DNA of 64,000 nt from Hymenobacter armeniacus. Its GTDB lineage: Bacteria; Bacteroidota; Bacteroidia; Cytophagales; Hymenobacteraceae. The notes beneath the pieces are model-generated. The model saw only the letters and a list, made by a program, of their open reading frames with translations. It was not told the DNA's origin and ran no database searches. Both the position numbers and the translations under genes were made by a program. Where the stretch lies: NCBI RefSeq assembly GCF_014699055.1, contig NZ_JACXAC010000002.1, positions 434,001-498,000 on the forward strand, written 5' to 3'. Below are positions 19,236 to 62,469 of the stretch, one piece after another (positions within the stretch are counted from its first letter, which is position 1; each line of letters opens with the position of its first letter).

Positions 19236-19280
19236 CGTCATGCTGAGCGCAGCCGAAGCATCTCTACCGCGCAAGTAATT
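19236..19280. repeat. Single (half) arm of repeat family A
   Basis: CGTCATGCTGAGCGCAGCCG... followed by AAGCATCTCTACCGCGCAAG, the same arm as in the complete elements at 33692 and 62379, but no second arm is found downstream. It lies between allE and the small membrane gene at 19290. Confidence 0.8.
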
Positions 19281-27308: not shown

Positions 27309-29600
27309 CTAAGCCCGCGCCACCGCACCCGTTTCACTCACCCCCACAAACTCCGGGTACAAGCTCACCAGCACCTTTTCCGGCGTCATCGGCGCGGAGA
27401 AGGGGAGGGCCGTGTGGCCTTGGAAGGCCCGCACCGCGTCGCGCAGGGCGAAGTAGGTGCCGATGCCGTACATGAGCGGCGGCTCGCCCACGGCCTTGGA
27501 GCGCAGGATGGCTTTGGGGTGGCCCGGCGTGTCGAGGAAATGCACATCGAGCACCTTGGGCGCGGCGTAGATGTCGGGGATTTTGTAGCTGTTGAGCGAG
27601 TTGCTGAGCAGGTGGCCTTCGTCGTTGTAGGCCACTTCCTCCATCGTCATCCAGCCGATGCCCTGCACTGCGCCGCCCTCAATCTGGCCCCGGTCGATGA
27701 CTTCGTTGAAGCTCTGGCCGAAATCGTGGGCAATGCGCAGGGCATCCACGGTGTAGGTGCCGCGCAGGCAGTCCACCGTCACGCTGGTGAGGGCCGTGCC
27801 GTACACGTGGTAGGCGAAGGGGTGGCCCTGGTTCACGGTGGCGTCGAAATGCAGGTCGGGGGTGGCGTAGTGGGCGTTTTCGGTGAGGGCCACGCGCTTC
27901 CAGAACGCCGACGACACCAGCTTCTCCCAGTTGGTATCGGCGGGCACGCCGGCGGCCAGCACCTGCTCGTCGTGGATTTCGAGGCCCTCGTAGTTGAGCG
28001 TGTACTCGGTGCTGGCGTGCTCGAGCAGGCGCTTGCGCAGGGCGGCGCAGGCCATTTCGGTGGCCTTGCCGTTGAGGTCGGCGGTGGCGCTGGCGGCGCT
28101 GGGGGAGGTGTTGGCGACGCGCGTGGTGTTGGTGGTTTCGATTTTGATGCGCGAAATCGAAATGCCCAGCGTGCGGGCCGCCACCTGCGCGATTTTCGTG
28201 TTCACGCCCTGGCCCATTTCCACCGCGCCCGTGCTGATGCCCACCGACCCGTCGGAGTAGATGTGCACCAGCGCCCGCGTCTGGTTCATGGGCGTTTTGG
28301 TGAACGAGATGCCGAAGCAGATGGGCATCACCGCGAAGCCCTTCTTCTTCAGCTTATTGGTTTGGTTGAACTGCTCGACTTCGGCCCGCATGCCGGCCAG
28401 GTCGAACTCGCGGGCGGCCGTGTCCCAGGCCTGCTCGGCGTGGCACATTTCGGCCGCCTGCCGGTACGAGAACAGGTCGCCCTCGCGCAGCAGGTTGCGC
28501 CGCTGCAGCTCGTAGGTGGGCAGGCCCAGCTCCTCGGCCGCCTTGGCCAGGGCCGACTCTATCACGAACATGCCCTGCGGCCCGCCGAAGCCCCGGAAGG
28601 CCGTGTTGGGCGGCAGGTTGGTGCGGCACGAAAAGGCCGTGGCCGTCACGTTGGGCACGAAATAGGCGTTGGTGGCGTGGAAGAGCGTGCGCTCCATCAC
28701 GGCCGGCGACAGGTCGGCGGCGGCCCCGGCGTTCTGGTAGAAGGTGACTTCGTAGGCCACGATTTTCAGGTCCTTATCGAAGCCGATTTTGAAATCGGAC
28801 GAGTAGGGGTGGCGCTTGCCGGTCATGCGCATGTCGGCCATACGGTCGAGCACCAGCTTCACCGGCTTCTTGGTGATGAAGGCGCCCAGCGCGGCCAGCG
28901 CCCCCCAGGGCGTGGCCTGGTCTTCCTTGCCGCCGAAACCGCCCCCGAGGCGCGTCACGTCCACTTCCACCTGGTGCATACCCAGGCCCAGCACCACGGC
29001 TGTGTGGCGCTGCACGGCCGTCGGCCCCTGCGTCGAGGAAATCATCCGCACCCCGCCCATCTCGGTGGGGAAGGCGTAGGCGCCCTGCGTTTCGATGTAT
29101 AAATGCTCCTGCCCGCCGTTCTCAGCCACGCCCTCGAACACGTGCGCACAAGTAGCCCAGGCCGCCGCCGAATCGCCGAGGCGGAAGGTGCGCGGCGGTA
29201 CAATCAACTCACCCTGCGCAGCCGCCACCCGCGGGTCGGTAATGACGGGCAGCGGGTCGATTTCGACCTTGATGAGCTTGAGGGCGGCGTGGGCCTGCGC
29301 CTCGGTGCGGGCCAGCACCAGCGCCACCGGCTGCCCCCGGAAATGCACGTGCCCCTCGGCCAGCAGCGGCTCATCGGCCACGATACCGCCAATCTGGTTC
29401 TGGCCGGGAATGTCCTGGGCCGTGAGCACGCGCACCACGCCCGGCGCGGCCAGCGCGGCGCTAAAATCGAGGCTGCGGAGCACGCCGTGGGCCAGCGGGC
29501 TTTCAAACACAGCCCCGTACAGGGTGCCCTGCTGCACGGGTACGTCGTCGAGGTACTGTGATTCGCCGCGCACGTGGCGGTTGGGGTCGAGGTGGTTCAT
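27309..29600 (-). CDS. xdhB: Xanthine dehydrogenase, molybdopterin-binding subunit
   Basis: 763 residues, right for a separate large subunit. The N-terminal substrate domain (RGESQYLDDVPVQQGTLYGA) is followed by the molybdenum-cofactor domain with VTRLGGGFGGKEDQA, N-T-A-F-R-G-F-G-G-P-Q-G, GAVEMGQGVNTK and the catalytic glutamate in KAVGEPPLMYG. It oxidises hypoxanthine/xanthine to urate with XdhA. ATG at 29600 chosen over the upstream in-frame codons (MQAKP). It follows xdhA on the minus strand, but a family C inverted repeat of about 135 bp lies between them. The C-terminal half faces the AT-rich insert with about 200 bp between. Confidence 0.94.
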   Translation of the reverse strand: MNHLDPNRHVRGESQYLDDVPVQQGTLYGAVFESPLAHGVLRSLDFSAALAAPGVVRVLTAQDIPGQNQIGGIVADEPLLAEGHVHFRGQPVALVLARTEAQAHAALKLIKVEIDPLPVITDPRVAAAQGELIVPPRTFRLGDSAAAWATCAHVFEGVAENGGQEHLYIETQGAYAFPTEMGGVRMISSTQGPTAVQRHTAVVLGLGMHQVEVDVTRLGGGFGGKEDQATPWGALAALGAFITKKPVKLVLDRMADMRMTGKRHPYSSDFKIGFDKDLKIVAYEVTFYQNAGAAADLSPAVMERTLFHATNAYFVPNVTATAFSCRTNLPPNTAFRGFGGPQGMFVIESALAKAAEELGLPTYELQRRNLLREGDLFSYRQAAEMCHAEQAWDTAAREFDLAGMRAEVEQFNQTNKLKKKGFAVMPICFGISFTKTPMNQTRALVHIYSDGSVGISTGAVEMGQGVNTKIAQVAARTLGISISRIKIETTNTTRVANTSPSAASATADLNGKATEMACAALRKRLLEHASTEYTLNYEGLEIHDEQVLAAGVPADTNWEKLVSSAFWKRVALTENAHYATPDLHFDATVNQGHPFAYHVYGTALTSVTVDCLRGTYTVDALRIAHDFGQSFNEVIDRGQIEGGAVQGIGWMTMEEVAYNDEGHLLSNSLNSYKIPDIYAAPKVLDVHFLDTPGHPKAILRSKAVGEPPLMYGIGTYFALRDAVRAFQGHTALPFSAPMTPEKVLVSLYPEFVGVSETGAVARA

Positions 29601-29626
29601 GGGTTTAGCTTGCAAGTCGCCCTCCG

Positions 29627-29763
29627 CGTCAACCTCACCCCTTGACCCCCTCTCCCAAAGAGAGGGGGCACCGGTCTGTGAGGACGACTTCAGACCGAAT
29701 TCGCAGGAGCAAGTCCGGTGCCCCCTCTCTTTGGGAGAGGGGGTCAGGGGGTGAGGTTGACGT
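29627..29763. repeat. Composite inverted repeat, family C
   Basis: The left arm, GTCAACCTCACCCCTTGACC followed by CCCTCTCCCAAAGAGAGGGGGCACCGG, is mirrored by a right arm ending GGGGTCAGGGGGTGAGGTTG and ACG. The arms are about 48 bp with about 40 bp of spacer. It lies between xdhA and xdhB. Confidence 0.92.
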
Positions 29764-29779
29764 CAGGAGACGCTTAAAT

Positions 29780-31324
29780 TTAAATCAATTCATCTACCGC
29801 CAGCTCCGGCGCAAACTCCAGGAAATGCGCCCACAATAACTGACGCAACAATAGTCGCTTGTAGTCGGTGGTGCCGCGCACGTCCGAAATTGGGCTGATT
29901 TCGGCCTGCATCACCTCGTTGGCAGCGGTCACGGTTTCGGCGGTCAGCTCGCGGCCTTGTAGGAAAGCGCTGGTGCGGGCCAGCAGCAGCGGCACCGGCC
30001 CCACGCCGCCCGCCGAAACGCGGGCCGCCTGGATAATGCCATTTTCGACCCGCAGCCAGGCGGCGGAATTCACGCTGGCAATGTCGAGGTGGGTGCGTTT
30101 GGATACTTTCTCGAAGTGGAAAAAGTCGCCGGCCAGAGGGGCGGGGAAGCTGATTTCGATAACCTGCTCGTCGGCGGCTTTCGCCAGTTTTTTGTAGCCG
30201 AGGTAGAGGTCGGGCAGGGCCAGCTCGCGGGTGGTGCCGGCCGTGCCGAGCAGCGTGATGGACGCGCCCAGGGCCAGGAACATTATGGTGAGGTCACCAA
30301 TTGGCGAGCCGTTGATGAAGTTGCCGGCCACCGTGCCCATGTTGCGGATGGGCGTGCTACTTACCAGCTTCAGGTACTGCGGCAGGTTGGGCAGCAGGCC
30401 GCGCAGCAGGTCCGATTCGAGCAGCTGGCTGGCCGTGGTGGCCGCACCCAGCACCACGCGGCCCGTGGTTTCGTGGCGGATGCCGCGCCGGCCGGGCTGG
30501 TCGAAAATCAAGCGCACGCCGGGCTGTTCGCGCAGCTCTTCTAGGCGCTGAACGAGTAGGTCGGTACCCCCTCCAATGAGTGAATGAGTGAATTGGCGAA
30601 TGGGTGAATGGCCGTGGTCGTTCTGGTTCTGGGCGTGGCCGTTGGGCGAGGTCGACACCTGGCTGCCGCCGTTGGCGTGAACGGTAGCAGAAGCTGCTAT
30701 AGCCGCTGAAGAAGCTTCCGTTGTCTGGGCTTCATTGAGGCGCAGCTTGGCGAGCTTGGCCGGGATGTCAGCGAAGTAGCCGGGCACGAATTGCTTATCG
30801 CTGAGCCAGGCCAGTGCGTTTTCGGCTGGGCGCTGTTCCAACTCGGCGGTGAGCCGGGCGGCGGCGCGCTCTAGCGACTTATAGCCCGTGCAGCGGCAGA
30901 TGTTGCCATCGATGGCCGCAATCGTGCTTTTCTTAGTGGCGGGCTGGCTGCTCAGGCTGTGGCCGGTGAGCGACATCACGAAGCCCACCGTGCAGAAGCC
31001 GCATTGTGAGCCGCCTTCATCCACAATGGCCTTTTGCACGGGGGTGAGTTGCGAGCCGGCCGCGTTGATGCCTTCCACCGTCACGATGTGTTTGCCGTGG
31101 GCGTTGCCCAGCGGCGTGAGGCAGCTGGTCATGCTTTGGTAGTTCACCATCTGGCCGTCGGCGCTTAGCTCGCCCACCAGCACGGTGCAGGCGCCGCAGT
31201 CGCCCTCGCGGCAGCCGATTTTGGTGCCCTTGAGCTGCTCGTGGTAGCGCACGAAATCGAGCAGGGCGCTGGCCGGGGCCTCGCTGGTGCGAATGGGCTG
31301 GTCGTTGAGGAGAAATTCAATCAT
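29780..31324 (-). CDS. xdhA: Xanthine dehydrogenase, Fe-S/FAD subunit
   Basis: 514 residues. Residues 1-80 form a plant-type ferredoxin domain (GCREGDCGACTVL); residues about 85-165 form the second 2Fe-2S domain (SQCGFCTVGF, ICRCTGY). The FAD-binding domain begins at IGGGTDLLVQ (about 250) and includes NMGTVAGNFINGSPIGD; the C-terminal CODH flavin domain ends with WAHFLEF. It passes electrons from the Mo site to NAD. A Ser/Ala/Asn-rich linker of about 50 residues precedes the FAD domain, and its last part (HSPIRQFTHSL) is encoded by a repeat of family D. The gene follows guaD, separated by a family A repeat. Confidence 0.94.
   Translation of the reverse strand: MIEFLLNDQPIRTSEAPASALLDFVRYHEQLKGTKIGCREGDCGACTVLVGELSADGQMVNYQSMTSCLTPLGNAHGKHIVTVEGINAAGSQLTPVQKAIVDEGGSQCGFCTVGFVMSLTGHSLSSQPATKKSTIAAIDGNICRCTGYKSLERAAARLTAELEQRPAENALAWLSDKQFVPGYFADIPAKLAKLRLNEAQTTEASSAAIAASATVHANGGSQVSTSPNGHAQNQNDHGHSPIRQFTHSLIGGGTDLLVQRLEELREQPGVRLIFDQPGRRGIRHETTGRVVLGAATTASQLLESDLLRGLLPNLPQYLKLVSSTPIRNMGTVAGNFINGSPIGDLTIMFLALGASITLLGTAGTTRELALPDLYLGYKKLAKAADEQVIEISFPAPLAGDFFHFEKVSKRTHLDIASVNSAAWLRVENGIIQAARVSAGGVGPVPLLLARTSAFLQGRELTAETVTAANEVMQAEISPISDVRGTTDYKRLLLRQLLWAHFLEFAPELAVDELI
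30575..30613. repeat. Family D repeat (GAATGGGTGAATGGC type) inside xdhA
   Basis: The plus strand reads ATGAGTGAATGAGTGAATTG then GCGAATGGGTGAATGGCC, a run of 7-8-bp (g)AATGgGTG units. The same units make both arms of the element between cysE and cysK at 45668. Here they are translated on the minus strand as residues about 238-250 of XdhA. Confidence 0.75.
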
Positions 31325-31357
31325 AATAGCTTGGTGATTGTGCCGTCTGTTATCCGT

Positions 31358-31462
31358 CTGTCATCCTGAGCGCAGCGAAGGACCTTCTCACGCCAGAACA
31401 ATTTGCAGTAATCAGGTGGCGCAAACGTGATAAGGTCCTTCGCTGCGCTCAGGATGACAGGC
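31358..31462. repeat. Composite inverted repeat, family A variant
   Basis: Left arm TGTCATCCTGAGCGCAGCGA then AGGACCTT; right arm AAGGTCCTTCGCTGCGCTCA then GGATGACAGG; about 45 bp spacer. It lies between guaD and xdhA. Confidence 0.92.
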
Positions 31463-31470
31463 GATTTACC

Positions 31471-31947
31471 CTAATACTCCGTTTTGCCTTCCAGTTCCGT
31501 CCAGGCGCGGAAACCGGCCAGGGCCTCGTCGCGCAGCAGCTGCGTCATGGGCAATTTACGGTTTTCCATGGGCCGGTCCAGTTCTTCGTAGATGAACTGG
31601 TCGTCGAAGCCAATGGCAGCGGCATCGGCCTTGGTGTTGCCGTAAAACACCCGGCGCGGGCGGGCCCAGTAGATGGCCCCGAGGCACATGGGGCAGGGCT
31701 CGCAGCTGGTGTAAAGGTCGCAGCCGTCGAGCTGGAAGGTGCCCAGTTCTTTGCAGGCCTTGCGGATGGCGTCGACTTCGGCGTGGCAGGTGGGGTCGTG
31801 GGTGGTGGTGACCTGGTTGAAGCCGCGGGCAATGATGTGGCCATCTTTCACCACCACGGCCCCGAAGGGCCCGCCAAAACCGGCCTGCATTTTTTCGATG
31901 GAAAGGCGAATGGCTTCGCGCATGAATTCGGGGTTGGGAGCTTCCAT
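31471..31947 (-). CDS. guaD: Guanine deaminase (cytidine-deaminase fold)
   Basis: 158 residues, similar in length to Bacillus GuaD. Zinc-site motifs: CHAEVDAIRKA (His and catalytic Glu) and SCEPCPMCLGAIYWA (two Cys). The tail D-D-Q-F-I-Y-E-E-L and late LAGFRAW also fit the GuaD group, which completes the neighbouring subunit's active site. The start ATG at 31947 (MEAPNPEFM) is preferred to the frame opening at 32004. It converts guanine to xanthine, the substrate of XdhA/B encoded just downstream on the same strand. tRNA adenosine deaminase is an alternative, but length, motifs and context favour GuaD. Confidence 0.9.
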   Translation of the reverse strand: MEAPNPEFMREAIRLSIEKMQAGFGGPFGAVVVKDGHIIARGFNQVTTTHDPTCHAEVDAIRKACKELGTFQLDGCDLYTSCEPCPMCLGAIYWARPRRVFYGNTKADAAAIGFDDQFIYEELDRPMENRKLPMTQLLRDEALAGFRAWTELEGKTEY

Positions 31948-32100
31948 AGGTGGGGAGACGTGAAAAAGCGTTTTCCGGAAACGATTCCGAAAAACGGGCA
32001 ACAAAGAACGCCACTGCGCGTGACATTCTTTGTTGCCCGCTCAGCCGCCGGCCACGGTCCGACCGCGCATGGCAAACCGCCTCCCGCGCCCGCAACGTGC

Positions 32101-33039
32101 TTACTGCTTAAACAAATTGGGCAGCCGCAGCTGGAAGCCCAGCGAAGGCACCACCGTCACGCCGCTCAGCGAGGTGCTTTGGCCGTTTAGCAGGGCGTAG
32201 TTGCCGTAGTTCTGGTAGAACAGCGACACCGCCGGGATGACGTAGAAGTAGCGGTAGCCCAGCTTCAGGTTCACAAACCCGCCGAACGACGAAAAATCGC
32301 GCTTCTGCAGCGTGAGCTCGGGCACCTGCACCGAGCCGTTGAACAGCTTGGTGGGGGCGAAGCCGTAGCTCACCCAGCTGTGGGCATACACCAGGCCGTA
32401 GCTGATGGCCCCGATTTCCTCCTCGGGTCCGAAGGAATTGCTGAACGTGAGCGGGATAAGCAGGTCGTAGCGCGTGGCCCGGAAATTCAGCAGCGAGTTG
32501 ATGTCGGACAAGAAGGACAGCCCCGGCAGCTTGGCGCGCTGGGTGGCAAACTGCAGGCCGATGCTGCCGTAGGTGGTGCCGGTGGTGGCGCCGGCGCCGG
32601 GGTCTTCGGGCGTGCCGGTGGGGCCCAGAAACTGGTACTGGGTGTCGAAGACGTGCGAGCCGAAGGCGTACTTGTAGCCCGCGTCGAGGCGCGGCACGAT
32701 GCCGTAGCGGAAGTTCAGGTCGGCGGTGGGCTGCACCGGGTCGAGCACGTAGGCCAGGGCGGCGGCCTGCAGTTGGGTGGTGGCGTCGGTGTAGTCCACC
32801 TTTTGCTGGGTCAGGGCCTGGCTGGCGGCTTCCTTCACGGCGGCGCCCGCTTTGCTGAGCGAGGCCGTGGCCACGTTGAAGCCCTGGTTGTAGCCCACCC
32901 GGAACTCGCCCTGGGGCGTGACTTTGCCGGTGGCCACAATGGCGCGCGGCGCGGTGCAGGAAGTAGCCAAGAGCAAGGCTGAAGCAGCGAACAGACCCGC
33001 CGAGCGCCACGAGGCAACACAAGAGAAAGAGATTTTCAT
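32101..33039 (-). CDS. Envelope lipoprotein, probably beta-rich, function unknown
   Basis: 312 residues with a lipoprotein signal (SAGLFAASALLLATSC), lipidated Cys near residue 27. The ATG at 33039 is chosen because the N-terminal basic/hydrophobic pattern begins there. After residue 100 the sequence alternates polar and aromatic/hydrophobic residues (ADLNFRYGIVPRLDAGYKYAFG, VNLKLGYRYFYVIPAVSLFYQ) and ends SLGFQLRLPNLF, as in small outer-membrane beta-barrels. I know of no named family. It is transcribed alone, divergently from the redoxin gene at 33161. Confidence 0.7.
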   Translation of the reverse strand: MKISFSCVASWRSAGLFAASALLLATSCTAPRAIVATGKVTPQGEFRVGYNQGFNVATASLSKAGAAVKEAASQALTQQKVDYTDATTQLQAAALAYVLDPVQPTADLNFRYGIVPRLDAGYKYAFGSHVFDTQYQFLGPTGTPEDPGAGATTGTTYGSIGLQFATQRAKLPGLSFLSDINSLLNFRATRYDLLIPLTFSNSFGPEEEIGAISYGLVYAHSWVSYGFAPTKLFNGSVQVPELTLQKRDFSSFGGFVNLKLGYRYFYVIPAVSLFYQNYGNYALLNGQSTSLSGVTVVPSLGFQLRLPNLFKQ

Positions 33040-33149
33040 AAGGGAAGAATAAGGAGAACGGGGCAAAAACGAAAATCAGGCCGAAAACGCCGGAACCCAG
33101 CGCCGGGCGGCGGTGTCTTTCCAACGCTTCGGCCCAACGCCAGCTGTTG

Positions 33150-33160: not shown

Positions 33161-33655
33161 ATGCCGCTGCTGTACTTGCTGGTCAGTTATTTAACGCTGT
33201 TGGTTTCGGGGCCTGCGCCGCGGGCCACGGTCTACGTTTTTCTGGCCGATACCTGCCCCATCAGCCAGGCGGCCACGCTGCCCTTGCGCGAGCTGCACGG
33301 CCAATACGCGGCGCAGGGCGTGCGGTTTGTGGGCGTGTTTCCGGCGGCCGACGCCACGCCGGCTGCCCTGGCCGCCTTCGCCAAAACCTACCAGCTGCCT
33401 TTCCCGCTGCAAGCCGACCCTGGCCACCGGCTCACCCGGCAGCTGCAGGCCCGCGTGACCCCGGAGGCCGTGGTGCTGGGGCCCGATGGCCGCACCGCCC
33501 TCTACCGCGGCCGCCTGAACGACGCCTACGCCGCCCTGGGCCAGCACCGCCCCGTGACGCGCCGCCACGAGCTGGCCGACGCCCTAGCCGATGTGGTGGC
33601 CGGCCGGCCCGTGGCCGTGCCGCGCACCGAGCCGGTGGGTTGTTTTATTGAGTAA
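33161..33655 (+). CDS. Redoxin-domain protein paired with the downstream copper monooxygenase-like protein
   Basis: 164 residues. A hydrophobic N-terminus (LLYLLVSYLTLLVSG) suggests export or anchoring. The thioredoxin-like fold has active-site TCPIS (one redox Cys in place of CxxC), FVGVFPAADATPAALAAFA, a cis-Pro region RVTPEAVVLGPDGRTALYRG, and ends with E-P-V-G-C-F-I-E. In my memory, planctomycete-type fusion proteins have exactly this module, including a terminal G-C-x-I, followed directly by a cytochrome c/copper type II monooxygenase module. Here that second module is the next gene at 33802. Likely role: redox partner or thiol maturation factor of the neighbour, outside the cytoplasm. 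Confidence 0.85.
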   Translation: MPLLYLLVSYLTLLVSGPAPRATVYVFLADTCPISQAATLPLRELHGQYAAQGVRFVGVFPAADATPAALAAFAKTYQLPFPLQADPGHRLTRQLQARVTPEAVVLGPDGRTALYRGRLNDAYAALGQHRPVTRRHELADALADVVAGRPVAVPRTEPVGCFIE

Positions 33656-33691
33656 ATTTGAGGTTAGAGCTTGCCCTATCTGCAAAAAAAA

Positions 33692-33786
33692 GTCGTCATG
33701 CTGAGCGTAGCCGAAGCATCTCTCCCGCAGGACTAACTCTGAATTACTTGCGCAGTAGAGATGCTTCGGCTGCGCTCAGCATGACG
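33692..33786. repeat. Composite inverted repeat, family A
   Basis: Left arm CGTCATGCTGAGCGTAGCCG then AAGCATCTCTCCCGCA; right arm GCGCAGTAGAGATGCTTCGG then CTGCGCTCAGCATGACG. It lies between the redoxin and monooxygenase-like genes, 15 nt before the latter. Confidence 0.92.
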
Positions 33787-33801
33787 TTTTAATTATTATT
33801 C

Positions 33802-35373
33802 ATGAAACACCTTTTCTCCCTTCTTTGCTTAACCGCTCTGCTGGCGGCGCCCCGCGCCCAGGCCCAAACCGGCGCGCAGGTCACGTTCAGCCAGCACATT
33901 GCCCCGCTGGTGTACCAGCATTGCACGCCCTGCCACCGCACGGGCGAGGTGGCCCCGTTTCCGCTCACCACCTACGCCGAGGTGGCCAGCCACGCCCAGA
34001 CCATTAAATACGTGACGGGCACCAAGTACATGCCGCCGTGGAAGCCCGACGCCAACTACCGGCACTACCTCGACGAAAACACCCTCACCACCACCGAAAT
34101 CCAGCAGATTCGGGACTGGGTCGACAATGGCATGCCGCAGGGCAACGCCGCCCAGACGCCGCCCGTGCCCACGTTCCCCAGCGGCTCGCAGCTGGGCACG
34201 CCCGACCTGGTGGTGCCCATGCGCCAGGCCTTCACGCATCAGGGCAACGGCCAGGACATGTACCGCATTTTCGTGCTGCCCGTGAACCTGCCCGCCGACC
34301 GCAACATCGCCGCCATCGAGTTTCGGGCCGGCAACAAGCGCATCGTGCACCACGTCATCATCGGCATGGACACCACCCAGCAGGCCCAGGCCCTCGACGC
34401 CGCCGACCCCGGCTACGGCTACACCCGCTTCGGGGGCTTCGGCTTCAGCCCCGTGGAAGAGGTGTTCGGCGCCTGGGTGCCGGGCATGCAGGCGCGCTTT
34501 TACCCCACGGGCATGGGCAAGAAGCTGTACCGCCGCGCTTCGCTGCTGCTCCAGATTCACTACGGCCCAAACTTCGTGACGCAGAAGGACTCGTCGGTGG
34601 TCAATATTTTCTTTGCCCGCCAGCCCGTCACGCGCTTCGTGCAAACGCTGCCGGCTATTTCGCCCAGCGTGCTCACCAACGGACCGTTTGTGATTCCGGC
34701 CAACCAGACCAAAACCTTCCGCGCCCAGCTCACGGTGCCCGCCGACGTCACGGTGCTCAGCGTGTCGCCGCACGCCCACCTGCTCAGCAAAAGCTGGAAG
34801 GTGTGGGCCGTGAAGCCCAACGGCGACACCATTCGGCTGGTGAAAATTAACGATTGGGACTTCCGTTGGCAGGGCACCTACCGCTTCACCGGCTTGCAGC
34901 GCATCCCCTTCGGCTCGCGCCTGATGGCCGAAGCCACCTACGACAACACCGCCAACAACCCGCGCAACCCCAACAACCCGCCCCAGCAAGTGACCTGGGG
35001 CGAAAGCACCACCGCCGAGATGCTGCTCACCTATTTTGAGCTGCTGCCCTACCAGCCCGGCGACGAAAGCATCGTGCTCAGCAGCCTGCCCGGCGTGGCC
35101 ACCACCCCCGGCACCGTGCAAATGGCCGTGTTTCCGAACCCGGCCAGCAGCGGCGGGGCGGCCATCAGTTTCCAGCTGGCCAAGCCCGGGCCCGTCAGCG
35201 TGGCGCTGGTCGATGCCACCGGCCGCGTGGTGCGCACGCTGGCCCGCGAGAAGGCCTACCCGGCCGGCCCGCAGCAACTCCCGCTGCCGCTGGAGGGCGT
35301 GGCCGCCGGCATCTATTTCGTGAAGCTGGAATCGAACGAAGGCACGCGGAACGAGAAGCTGGTGGTGAAGTAA
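33802..35373 (+). CDS. Secreted cytochrome c/copper type II monooxygenase-like protein with T9SS domain
   Basis: 523 residues with signal peptide (FSLLCLTALLAAPRAQAQ). A cytochrome c-like module holds C41-x-x-C44-H45 (HCTPCHRTGEVAPFPL) and YMPPWKPD. The following module resembles peptidylglycine monooxygenase: H183-H184 (IVHHVIIG) and H253 (LQIHYGP) for one copper, H324-x-H326 (SPHAHLL) and M407 (TTAEML) for the other. The end, VFPNPASSGGAA to GVAAGIYFVKLESNEG, is a T9SS type A sorting domain. The protein is predicted to be an extracellular oxygenase with built-in heme. Its substrate is unknown. The redoxin gene just upstream is the probable partner. Confidence 0.88.
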   Translation: MKHLFSLLCLTALLAAPRAQAQTGAQVTFSQHIAPLVYQHCTPCHRTGEVAPFPLTTYAEVASHAQTIKYVTGTKYMPPWKPDANYRHYLDENTLTTTEIQQIRDWVDNGMPQGNAAQTPPVPTFPSGSQLGTPDLVVPMRQAFTHQGNGQDMYRIFVLPVNLPADRNIAAIEFRAGNKRIVHHVIIGMDTTQQAQALDAADPGYGYTRFGGFGFSPVEEVFGAWVPGMQARFYPTGMGKKLYRRASLLLQIHYGPNFVTQKDSSVVNIFFARQPVTRFVQTLPAISPSVLTNGPFVIPANQTKTFRAQLTVPADVTVLSVSPHAHLLSKSWKVWAVKPNGDTIRLVKINDWDFRWQGTYRFTGLQRIPFGSRLMAEATYDNTANNPRNPNNPPQQVTWGESTTAEMLLTYFELLPYQPGDESIVLSSLPGVATTPGTVQMAVFPNPASSGGAAISFQLAKPGPVSVALVDATGRVVRTLAREKAYPAGPQQLPLPLEGVAAGIYFVKLESNEGTRNEKLVVK

Positions 35374-36672: not shown

Positions 36673-36770
36673 GTGTAGAGACGCATACTTGCGTCTCGGT
36701 GGCCGCGCCGTGTGGGTGTCGTTCAAATGTCATTGTTCAACGGCGAGACGCAAGTATGCGTCTCTACATC
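36673..36770. repeat. Composite inverted repeat, family B
   Basis: Left arm GTGTAGAGACGCATACTTGC then GTCTCG (36673-36698); right arm CGAGACGCAAGTATGCGTCT then CTACAT (36744-36769). As in the copy at 20400, each arm contains a smaller palindrome. Confidence 0.92.
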
Positions 36771-36790
36771 GTTCGCGCTACATTTACCGC

Positions 36791-38815
36791 ATGCCCCACC
36801 GCTCCTCACGATTCTGGCCGTTGCTGCTGTTGCTGGCCGGCTGCGTTCGCACGCCCCGGCCCAGCGCCGGCCTCGCCAATAAGTACCACGACGCCACCAT
36901 TCGGCAAATTGGCACGGCGCAGGACGAGCGCAACACCGCCGCGCTGCTACCCTCCCTGGCCGATTCTAACCCTACCTACCGCCGTGAGGCTGCCCTGGCG
37001 TTTGCCTCGGTGCAGGCGCCGGCCGCCGTGCCCGGCCTGCTGCTGCTGCTGCGCGATGCCGACCTCAGCGTGCGCTGCGCCGCCGCGTATGCCCTGGGCC
37101 AAATCGGCGACAGCGCCGCCGTGGAGCCCCTGCGCGTGCGCGTGCAGGCAGAGGACGACCCCGTGGTGCGCCGCTACGTGCACGAGGCGCTGGGCCGCAC
37201 CGTCACGCGGCACAGCTTGCCCCAGTTGTGGCGCGTCGAAACCCGAAACGATACTGCCCGGGTGGCTGCCCTGGCGTATGGCCTGAGCCGGGCCGCGCTG
37301 CGCGGCATCGGTTCACCGGAAAGCATTCGTCAAACCGTTGCCTTGCTGAATACCCCCAAATTGCCAACCCGGGCGCGGGTGCTGGCTGCCGTGGGCCTCT
37401 CGCGCACCCGCGGGCTCGATGCCGAGCTGAAAAAGCAGGGCGAAACGACCTTGTTGCGCCTTGCACAGAAAGACCGGTCGTATGCCGTGCGGGCGTCTGT
37501 TGCCACCACTTTGGGCAAAATTGCCGCCATTCCGGTGCCCGCCGATGCATTGGGCCGGAAAGGCGCAGGCGGCGCGGCCGCCACCCTGACCCGCCTCGCC
37601 ACTAAGGACGCGGATTACCGCGTGCGGCTGAGCGCCATTCGTGCCTTGCCGTTCGACCAGGAAAACTACCCGGCCAGCCGCAAAGCCGTCTTCACGGCCC
37701 TGAACCGCGACCAGCCCGCCGTGGCCCTCACGGCGGCCGAGTGGCTGCTGGCCCACGCCAAAGGCGAGTCGGGCGCGGCCCTGGCCGCGCTGGCCGATGG
37801 CAACAAGCAGGCCTCGCCGCGGGTGCGGGCGGCCCTGCTGCAAGCGGCTGTGCGCCACGCCAGCCCGGCGGCCCGGCCCAGCCTGGTCGAGACGCTGCAG
37901 AAGCGCTTCAACAGCGCGGCCGACATGTACGAAGGCTCTTTCCTGATTCAGGCGATGGGGGAGGACCCGGCGGCGTTTGACTTCGTTCGGATTCAGGCGT
38001 TTGCGCCGCAGCAGGTGCCCGTAGTGGCCGGGGCCGCGACGGCGGCGCTGCTGGCCATGCGCCGCAATCCTGATTTCCCGGTGGCCAAACAGGCCGATTT
38101 TGCCGCCGCCATGCGCCAGGCTCTGGCTGGCGGCGACGTGGCCCAGCTCGGCACCGCCGCCGAAGCCTACGCCGACGCCAAACTCTTTCCCGAACCCCAG
38201 GCCGCCGACCTCGCCGCCCTGCGCCAGGCCCAGGCCAAGCTGCGTCTGCCCCGCGAAATTGAGGCCTGGCAGGGTTTGCAGCAGGCCTTGGATAAGCTCG
38301 AAAAAAAGGCAGCGCCCACGCCGTCGCCCCTTGCCACGGCCGCCCAACACCCCATCGACTGGGCCGTGGTGCAGGCCGTGCCGCTGGGCCAGCAGGTGCG
38401 GCTGCGCACCAGCAAAGGCATTATTCTGCTGGAGCTGAAGCCCAACGAGGCGCCTGGCGCAGTGGCCAGCTTCGTGGCGCTGCTCAACGAGCATTTCTAC
38501 GACAAGCTGTACTTCCACCGCGTGGTGCCCAATTTCGTGGCCCAGGGCGGCGACCCGCGCGGCGACGGCAACGGCAGCGCGCCCTACAACCTGCGCTCCG
38601 AATTTGGCGACCTGCACTACCAGGAAGGCAGCGTGGGGCTGGCCTCGGCCGGCAAGGACACCGAAAGCTGCCAGTTCTTTATCACCCACACGCCCACGCC
38701 GCACCTCGACGGCCGCTACCCCATATTTGCGCAGGTGGTGGGCGGGCTGGACGTGGTGCACAAGCTCGACATCGGCGACCAGATTCTGGGCGTGGAGCTG
38801 GTGACCGTGAAGTAG
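36791..38815 (+). CDS. Lipoprotein with HEAT repeats fused to a cyclophilin peptidyl-prolyl isomerase
   Basis: 674 residues. Lipobox LLLLLAGC puts the mature N-terminus at about residue 17. Residues 30-500 are a helical solenoid of HEAT/PBS-lyase-like repeats (YRREAALAFASVQAPAAVPGL, VRCAAAYALGQIGDSAAVEPL, VRRYVHEALGRT). Residues about 535-674 are cyclophilin: FYDKLYFHRVVPNFVAQGGDP (Arg, Phe and Gln of the active site), GSVGLASAGKDTESCQFFI and HLDGRYPIFAQVVGGLDVV. The usual tryptophan of cyclosporin-binding forms is replaced. It likely acts as a folding factor for outer-membrane or exported proteins on the periplasmic side, with the HEAT part as a docking platform. Start chosen at the ATG giving the lipoprotein signal. 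Confidence 0.9.
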   Translation: MPHRSSRFWPLLLLLAGCVRTPRPSAGLANKYHDATIRQIGTAQDERNTAALLPSLADSNPTYRREAALAFASVQAPAAVPGLLLLLRDADLSVRCAAAYALGQIGDSAAVEPLRVRVQAEDDPVVRRYVHEALGRTVTRHSLPQLWRVETRNDTARVAALAYGLSRAALRGIGSPESIRQTVALLNTPKLPTRARVLAAVGLSRTRGLDAELKKQGETTLLRLAQKDRSYAVRASVATTLGKIAAIPVPADALGRKGAGGAAATLTRLATKDADYRVRLSAIRALPFDQENYPASRKAVFTALNRDQPAVALTAAEWLLAHAKGESGAALAALADGNKQASPRVRAALLQAAVRHASPAARPSLVETLQKRFNSAADMYEGSFLIQAMGEDPAAFDFVRIQAFAPQQVPVVAGAATAALLAMRRNPDFPVAKQADFAAAMRQALAGGDVAQLGTAAEAYADAKLFPEPQAADLAALRQAQAKLRLPREIEAWQGLQQALDKLEKKAAPTPSPLATAAQHPIDWAVVQAVPLGQQVRLRTSKGIILLELKPNEAPGAVASFVALLNEHFYDKLYFHRVVPNFVAQGGDPRGDGNGSAPYNLRSEFGDLHYQEGSVGLASAGKDTESCQFFITHTPTPHLDGRYPIFAQVVGGLDVVHKLDIGDQILGVELVTVK

Positions 38816-62378: not shown

Positions 62379-62469
62379 ACGTCATGCTGAGCGCAGTCGA
62401 AGCATCTCTACCGCAGTAGCAATCATTCACCCGCGCAGTAGAGATGCTTCGACTGCGCTCAGCATGACG
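62379..62469. repeat. Composite inverted repeat, family A
   Basis: Left arm ACGTCATGCTGAGCGCAGTC then GAAGCATCTCTAC; right arm GTAGAGATGCTTCGACTGCG then CTCAGCATGACG. About 25 bp spacer; 15 nt before the next ATG. Confidence 0.93.

What the first reader, a model, noticed from the sequence alone, without database searches (positions are those of the whole stretch)
33161..35373. Redoxin and copper monooxygenase-like proteins encoded separately; elsewhere they are fused
The redoxin gene ends with G-C-F-I-E and the next gene begins, after its signal peptide, with a CxxCH heme module and then a two-copper monooxygenase module (H183, H184, H253, H324, H326, M407). As I recall, planctomycete-type proteins carry these same modules in this order in one chain, joined at the same G-C-x-I. 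The split version also has a T9SS domain, placing the oxygenase outside the cell. Substrate and purpose are unknown; together they may be a self-maturing extracellular oxygenase.
Basis: partly seen in the sequence, partly recalled or inferred. Interest (0 to 1): 0.6.

Follow-up and report, generated by a model that had tools for sequence, protein, structure and literature searches.

The report
Heme-copper oxygenase with dedicated redox partner
Two neighbouring genes in a Hymenobacter genome encode a heme-and-copper protein with a secretion tail, built like the animal enzymes that make peptide hormones and noradrenaline, and a small redox protein that goes with it in distant bacteria, sometimes fused into one chain; what the pair does is not yet known.

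Summary
The redoxin (33161-33655) ends RTEPVGCFIE. The next gene (33802-35373) encodes a signal peptide, a CxxCH heme site, a two-copper domain and a T9SS tail. The predicted fold matches PHM/DBH (Z about 22); each copper ligand is kept in 89-92 of 92 relatives. One-chain forms with the same junction exist: 19 of 32 Planctomycetota loci examined, and one Bacteroidota genome. Split forms occur in Planctomycetota too. G-C-x-I is the common end of a wider redoxin family; a 13-15-residue loop marks the copper-linked redoxins (64 of 66, against 0 of 19 unlinked). In 101 genomes of the genus the copper protein was found in 30 and this redoxin in 31, both in 30. In eight of these the native copper gene is gone, a different copper protein lies elsewhere (incomplete in two), and the redoxin remains at its old place. 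Best reading: a heme-wired PHM-like hydroxylase, secreted here, with a dedicated periplasmic thiol-redox partner for its maturation. Family placement and partnership are strong; redoxin role, activity and substrate are inference. New variant of a known kind.

The parts
33161..33655 (+). Redoxin (AhpC/TSA-type, 2cvb/2ywi/3u5r-like), 164 aa, hydrophobic N-terminus, C32-P33 active-site cysteine, long loop AYAALGQHRPVTRR (contains LGxxR), end G160-C161-F-I-E
33656..33801 (.). Intergenic gap holding a near-perfect palindromic repeat (25-base cores at 33698-33722 and 33758-33782); RNA fold -72.5 kcal/mol, z -10.3
33802..35373 (+). Heme c / two-copper PHM-like protein with signal peptide and T9SS tail, 523 aa
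33802..33864 (+). Signal peptide (about residues 1-21, cleavage near AQA/Q)
   Evidence: sequence by eye
33868..34131 (+). Cytochrome c-like module: C41-x-x-C44-H45, candidate distal ligand M77 in MPPWK
34198..35067 (+). PHM/DBH-like two-copper module: CuH-type ligands H183, H184, H253; CuM-type ligands H324, H326, M407
35128..35370 (+). T9SS type A sorting domain (residues 443-523)

Best explanation
A two-gene system made of (1) a PHM/DBH-fold dicopper oxygenase with a built-in c-type heme module and, in this Hymenobacter group, a T9SS tail, and (2) a dedicated exported thioredoxin-fold partner. Shown by computation: the modules, the ligands, the fold match, the co-inheritance and the fusions. 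Inferred mechanism: the redoxin works in the periplasm on the not yet exported oxygenase, most likely keeping the CxxCH thiols reduced for heme ligation and perhaps helping Cu(I) loading. The holo-protein is then exported by T9SS. Outside, the heme c feeds electrons to the CuH-type site in place of ascorbate, and O2 is activated at the CuM-type site to hydroxylate an unknown substrate. My own split: two-copper PHM-like module about 0.93; redoxin as dedicated functional partner about 0.85; maturation rather than co-catalysis about 0.45; heme as electron inlet about 0.6. The confidence below is for the whole chain of statements.
For: Fold of the window protein: PHM 5wja_D Z 21.9 (262 aligned, rmsd 3.2, 17% identity), DBH 4zel_A Z 21.6 (271 aligned, rmsd 3.0); profile hits DBH E 1.9e-7 and PHM 8e-6, with HH, H, HxH and M in register with PHM. 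Ligands in 92 distinct relatives: heme C/C/H 91, M77 92, H183/H184 92, H253/H324/H326 91, M407 89. Redoxin upstream on the same strand in 26 of 26 Bacteroidota or unclassified loci of the first sweep, fused in 2 of 2 Planctomycetota loci. Genus sample of 101: copper protein 30, redoxin 31, both 30. Partner swap: in 8 genomes the redoxin keeps its place between the same flanking genes while the native copper gene is gone and a copper protein of another clade lies elsewhere; holding the genus copper proteins in one clade is rejected (32 rows, AU p 1.9e-73), whereas the 33 genus redoxins in the tree form one clade (SH-aLRT 98). Long loop of 13-15 residues in 64 of 66 linked redoxins against 0 of 19 unlinked; the non-adjacent redoxins of G101 and G105 have it. 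For maturation: the only conserved cysteines in the copper proteins are the two heme ones; the redoxin domain, tested on the fused homologue L036, resembles ResA (Z 16.8); no split redoxin checked has room for a T9SS tail. T9SS SprA and two Cytochrom_C_asm proteins are encoded in the genome.
Against: Not every copper protein has such a redoxin: 5 of 14 copper-bearing Bacteroidota genomes lack a strong one, and acidobacterial genome G151 has 15 copper-module matches and no redoxin at 1e-12, while G150 has 42 matches and one redoxin (both are MAGs by title and may be incomplete). G340 has the redoxin and no copper module at 1e-50. In two of the eight swapped genomes the copper gene looks incomplete: L106 ends before the M407 place and L107 lies in two frames, so the swapped partner may be decaying there. 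Fusion into one chain suggests a lasting rather than a transient role. The window redoxin lacks CxxC (it has CPIS; C at that place in 15 of 66), unlike ResA. Its N-terminus has no basic residue and no clear cleavage site, so export is inferred. Apocytochrome reduction is usually done by shared factors (recalled). No activity, metal or localisation data exist, and Z values come from predicted models.
Confidence: 0.3

Rival explanations
1. The redoxin is a working subunit, not a maturation factor: it passes electrons to the heme or removes peroxide made by uncoupled copper chemistry, so it must stay with the enzyme.
For: One-chain forms in 20 of 92 rows give permanent 1:1 stoichiometry next to the heme module; the loop of the linked redoxins could be a contact surface (inference).
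Against: In the window's Hymenobacter group the oxygenase has a T9SS-length tail and the redoxin none, so they should part after export; the Thr of peroxiredoxins three residues before the cysteine (recalled motif) is A in the window protein; T in 2 and S in 12 of 66 linked redoxins.
Confidence: 0.25
2. The redoxin is a copper chaperone, TlpA/Sco-like, loading Cu(I) into the His/Met sites (a special form of maturation).
For: Thioredoxin-fold copper factors are known (recalled); two nearly invariant cysteines (66 of 66 and 65 of 66) and a common His (47 of 66) could bind Cu(I).
Against: The His also occurs in 4 of 19 unlinked redoxins and is absent in 19 of 66 linked ones; the window redoxin has no CxxxC; distances between these residues could not be measured here.
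Confidence: 0.2
3. The copper domain has lost oxygenase activity and serves binding or electron transfer only.
For: The one PHM substrate residue looked at is not kept: the place of PHM R240 (recalled role) is S322 here (by eye).
Against: Both copper sites are nearly invariant in 92 relatives; only L047 has clearly lost ligands.
Confidence: 0.1
4. Mere neighbours: adjacency is inherited from an ancestor and carries no function.
For: The near relatives are not independent; the 21 other linked genus loci share one gene order around the pair.
Against: Fused rows fall in several parts of the copper tree (5 changes of the label); the redoxin persists after physical separation in 8 genus genomes and in G101 and G105; linked redoxins have their own loop.
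Confidence: 0.05

Closest known systems
Peptidylglycine alpha-hydroxylating monooxygenase (PHM) and dopamine beta-hydroxylase (DBH)
   Same: Predicted two-domain fold and all six copper ligands
   Different: Heme c module at the N-terminus, no conserved cysteines besides the heme pair, PHM peptide-anchor Arg (recalled) not kept, bacterial secretion tail, redoxin partner; substrate and activity unknown
Thioredoxin-like proteins 2cvb/2ywo, 2ywi, 3u5r
   Same: Sequence and, for the fused homologue L036, fold (Z 18.9-19.3); CP and, in 2ywi and 3u5r, the terminal G-C-x-I
   Different: Copper-linked members carry a longer loop, usually with LGxxR, and are mostly predicted to be exported, or are fused
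ResA / CcmG (apocytochrome thiol reductases)
   Same: Thioredoxin fold (ResA Z 16.8 for L036); possible role towards CxxCH
   Different: Second active-site cysteine absent in the window protein; a conserved C-terminal cysteine instead; tied to one client family
Cellobiose dehydrogenase and LPMO pairs
   Same: Idea of a heme domain that feeds a copper monooxygenase (one passage of PMC5987398)
   Different: Unrelated folds (recalled); here heme and copper lie in one chain

Membership tests
PHM/DBH copper type II monooxygenases | Two-domain PHM fold | tested here: met
   Model of P0002 (mean pLDDT 82): PHM Z 21.9, DBH Z 21.6; predicted, not solved
PHM/DBH copper type II monooxygenases | Six copper ligands HH, H / HxH, M | tested here: met
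   Present in the window; 89-92 of 92 relatives by position; in register with PHM 1opm
PHM/DBH copper type II monooxygenases | Curated Pfam cut-offs for both domains | tested here: not met
   Window protein 21.1 against 23 and 15.7 against 30; relatives L036 (27.6) and L097 (23.5) pass the C-terminal one
PHM/DBH copper type II monooxygenases | Ascorbate-dependent hydroxylation | not testable with these tools
   Needs biochemistry
PHM proper (peptidylglycine hydroxylase) | Peptide-anchor Arg (R240, recalled) and internal disulfides (recalled) | tested here: not met
   S322 at that place (by eye); no conserved Cys beyond C41 and C44 in 92 rows
c-type cytochrome module | CxxCH plus distal Met | tested here: inconclusive
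   CxxCH 91 of 92, M77 92 of 92, but Pfam Cytochrome_CBB3 17.3 against 27, and the distal role of M77 is inferred
T9SS type A cargo | C-terminal sorting domain and T9SS in the genome | tested here: met
   TIGR04183 41.9 bits against 23, Pfam 34.4 against 27; SprA 2229 bits; secretion itself untested
AhpC/TSA redoxins | Family profile, CP active site | tested here: met
   39.9 bits against 26; CP in 66 of 66 linked relatives
Peroxiredoxins proper | Thr/Ser three residues before the peroxidatic Cys (recalled) | tested here: not met
   A in the window; T 2 and S 12 of 66 linked redoxins
ResA/CcmG | CxxC active site | tested here: not met
   CPIS in the window; C at +3 in 15 of 66 linked redoxins

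The most novel reading that the evidence does not exclude
A bacterial class of PHM/DBH-type enzymes that needs no ascorbate because it carries its own heme c electron inlet, is loaded with heme and copper in the periplasm with the help of a private redoxin, and in Hymenobacter is exported as a finished holo-enzyme through T9SS. The redoxin can serve a replaced, distantly related partner, as the eight swapped genomes suggest.
Probability: 0.22. Interest if true: 0.78.

Novelty: new variant of a known kind. Interest (0 to 1): 0.56.

Why it matters
PHM and DBH are textbook enzymes of animal hormone and transmitter synthesis; a 2020 review of metalloproteins, as I read its copper table in the passages seen, lists them in the eukaryotic and not the prokaryotic column (PMC7435645). 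Here is a well-conserved bacterial group with the same copper sites, an added heme and a private redox partner, found in records titled Bacteroidota, Planctomycetota, Acidobacteria and Armatimonadetes. It would offer a natural answer to how such an enzyme works without ascorbate, and a clean test (split, fused and swapped forms) of whether a thioredoxin-fold partner matures or drives a copper enzyme. If the T9SS prediction holds, it also implies export of a protein already carrying covalent heme.

Tried and rejected
G-C-x-I as a diagnostic junction: rejected, because all 19 unlinked redoxins compared share it. 'Fused in Planctomycetota, split in Bacteroidota' as a rule: rejected (L050, L051, L053 and L057 split in Planctomycetota; L111 fused in Bacteroidota). 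The conserved His as a copper-linked mark: rejected, because it is not exclusive. The redoxin as disulfide isomerase of the copper domain: unlikely, no conserved cysteines there. A phylum-wide claim that this redoxin type occurs only with the copper protein was narrowed: 17 of 25 Bacteroidota genomes with an A2 match at 1e-28 lack the copper module, but their redoxins are all of the short-loop kind. Literature: no paper describing this arrangement was seen in the listings of searches (71 was on ResA); passages of five papers were read; the library holds open-licence papers only. Gene gap lengths rest on a rough choice of start codons, for 40 of 44 upstream rows; 19 of the 40 are 30 bases or less.

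Rows dropped before counts: partial copper modules L039, L074, L107, L114 and the second one of L060, and 14 identical copies; L048 was left out of the copper tree. Four further fused Planctomycetota loci (L153, L156, L160, L161) came in by the redoxin search and are not in the 32. Fetched but unused: L179. Trees are 'quick' ones with SH-aLRT only, several rows sit on long branches, and the clade tested was named after seeing the tree.

Full report
What is there. The window lies in a genome of the Hymenobacter genus (G000, contig C4; closest named locus H. ruricola, 94% for the copper protein). Two plus-strand genes stand next to each other: a redoxin (33161-33655, 164 aa) and a 523-aa protein (33802-35373) with a signal peptide, a CxxCH heme site, a two-copper module and a T9SS type A sorting domain. 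The copper module is single-copy in the genome: the other 40 matches cover only the C-terminal part with the T9SS tail (query residue 399 onward).

Is the copper protein what it looks like? Pfam alone is below its cut-offs. A profile of 18 relatives finds DBH (E 1.9e-7) and PHM (8e-6) among solved structures, with the HH pair, the third His, the HxH pair and the Met in register with PHM. The AlphaFold model of the window protein (mean pLDDT 82) aligns to PHM with Z 21.9 over 262 residues and to DBH with Z 21.6; the T9SS tail gives middling matches to PorU (Z 9.7) and the mirolase tail (Z 8.9) among other beta domains. Conservation across 92 distinct relatives: heme Cys, Cys and His 91, M77 92, H183 and H184 92, H253, H324 and H326 91, M407 89. 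The exceptions are gaps in L048 and L106 and one fused protein, L047, that has truly lost several ligands. These rows include many close species and are not independent.

Fused and split. The first sweep (by peptide patterns of the window protein) gave 31 loci. A redoxin lies upstream on the same strand in all 26 loci titled Bacteroidota (or a family within it) or, in one case, an unclassified bacterium; both Planctomycetota loci have it in the same chain; two Acidobacteria loci and one Armatimonadetes locus have none within the stretch held. The junctions read RTEPVGC-FIE and stop in the window, RTEPVGC-LFEAW... in L036 and RTQSVGC-VFEAW... in L038. A wider sample of 119 Planctomycetota genomes had the module in 37 at 1e-80. 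Of 32 loci of that phylum reached through the copper module, 19 are fused, 4 split with the redoxin upstream, 1 with it downstream, 7 without it nearby and 1 too partial to count. Of 148 Bacteroidota genomes 14 have the module at 1e-20: 4 with the redoxin upstream, 1 downstream, 1 divergent, 1 fused (L111), 2 with the redoxin elsewhere in the genome, 5 without a strong one. One search adds long-loop redoxins away from the best copper locus in the Armatimonadetes genome (L151) and beside another copper gene piece in an Acidobacteria genome (L150).

What the G-C-x-I end means. The same end is found in 19 of 19 redoxins that do not lie beside a copper gene (17 Bacteroidota genomes and two paralogues of the window genome) and in the solved proteins 2ywi and 3u5r; it marks a wider redoxin family. 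What sets the copper-linked redoxins apart is a loop after the last strand: 13-15 residues in 64 of 66 linked redoxins, 9-11 in all 19 unlinked ones; it usually holds LGxxR (at those columns G in 56 and R in 49 of 66). The two redoxins of G101 and G105, which lie away from the copper gene, have the long loop, and the eight unlinked genus redoxins all read LGQRR there.

Evidence for a functional bond. In 101 genomes of the genus, 30 have the copper module (1e-50) and 31 this redoxin (1e-32), with all 30 in both lists; the exception, G340, keeps the redoxin and lacks the copper gene between redoxin and glycosyltransferase. A plain Fisher test gives 7e-25, which ignores shared ancestry. Stronger is the swap. 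In all 21 other linked genus loci the order is outer-membrane-like gene, redoxin, copper gene, with the glycosyltransferase next in 18. In eight genomes the redoxin still lies between the outer-membrane-like gene and the glycosyltransferase (5 of 8) or the HEAT-cyclophilin gene (the other 3, where about 2 kb separate it from the outer-membrane-like gene), with no copper gene there; a copper protein 37-41% identical to the window's, without a T9SS-length tail, lies elsewhere. Two of these eight copper genes look incomplete (L106 ends before M407, L107 is in two frames). The seven of these long enough for the tree fall with copper proteins of other families (SH-aLRT 98), and one clade for the 32 genus copper proteins is rejected (AU p 1.9e-73); the 33 genus redoxins in the tree, swapped ones included, form one clade (98). 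The redoxin thus appears to have been inherited in place while its partner was exchanged.

How it may work. Established: PHM and DBH hydroxylate with two coppers reduced by ascorbate (recalled). Here the heme c module next to the copper domain is a natural electron inlet (inference). The redoxins have hydrophobic N-termini (a value was obtained for 51 of 57 loci, low in L037), several with lipoprotein-like cysteines by eye; the window's own has no basic residue, so its export is inferred. None of the split redoxins checked has more than 15 residues after its GC end, apart from L070, which has no GC end and stops at the junction (57 loci, 48 distinct). Since the oxygenase in this group carries a T9SS tail, the two should share only the periplasm, before export; that favours maturation over a share in catalysis. 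The partner's only conserved thiols are the heme-binding pair, which points to apocytochrome thiol reduction as in ResA (role of ResA: passages of PMC3884852), or to help with metal loading, which needs no partner thiols. Against this: fused forms suggest a lasting role, ResA-like CxxC is absent here and in 51 of 66 linked redoxins, and some genomes have the copper protein and no such redoxin. The genome encodes SprA and two Cytochrom_C_asm proteins and gave no ResB match, so T9SS and parts of a heme attachment system are present.

Verdict. A real, conserved pair and a new variant of the PHM/DBH kind. What is strong: modules, fold, ligands, fusion, co-inheritance and swap. What is inference: oxygenase activity, electron path, redoxin role, secretion of holo-protein. 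Substrate unknown; peptidylglycine is not favoured because the PHM anchor Arg (recalled) is not kept.

Noticed in passing
33698-33782; also 19240-19264 and 62384-62465: Strong palindromic repeat between the two genes; its 25-base core occurs 5 times in the window against 0 expected, two pairs facing each other; perhaps a dispersed REP-like element that could act as a terminator or transcript stabiliser.
   Followed up: partly
L070 (G157), junction of the two ORFs: Redoxin and copper parts lie in one frame parted by a single stop codon at the usual fusion junction; true split, decay or assembly error cannot be told.
   Followed up: no
L047 (G148): Fused homologue with the HH pair kept but the other copper ligands replaced (Y, Y, R, A), a possible inactive relative.
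   Followed up: no
G150 and G151 (loci L041, L042, L045, L046, L049): Acidobacterial genomes with 42 and 15 matches to the heme-copper module (some are pieces of one gene); L029 of G150 carries TPR repeats after it; a large unexplained expansion.
   Followed up: partly
L121, L123, L124, L125, L128: Short-loop redoxins followed closely by an ORF of 170-178 aa; the one tested (L123) is itself thioredoxin-like, so a redoxin-redoxin pair.
   Followed up: partly
L170 (G340): Redoxin kept and copper gene absent at the same site: the only genome of the genus sample with one and not the other at the thresholds used.
   Followed up: partly
L111 (G118): Fused form in a Bacteroidota genome that groups with the Planctomycetota locus L077 in both trees (91 and 99), which looks like horizontal transfer.
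   Followed up: no
L106 (G360) and L107 (G280): Copper genes of two swapped genomes look incomplete: one ends early, one lies in two frames; decay or assembly error.
   Followed up: no
window 36764-38812 (+): HEAT repeats fused to a cyclophilin-type prolyl isomerase, with a lipoprotein-like start by eye.
   Followed up: no
window 27309-32004 (-): Molybdenum hydroxylase (xanthine dehydrogenase-like) genes next to a cytidine/deoxycytidylate deaminase-type gene, perhaps purine breakdown (the first gene by eye).
   Followed up: no
window 32101-33066 (-): Outer-membrane-like protein (by eye) with no Pfam match that is found near the redoxin in all 30 genus loci examined for it (21 linked, 9 without the copper gene).
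   Followed up: partly
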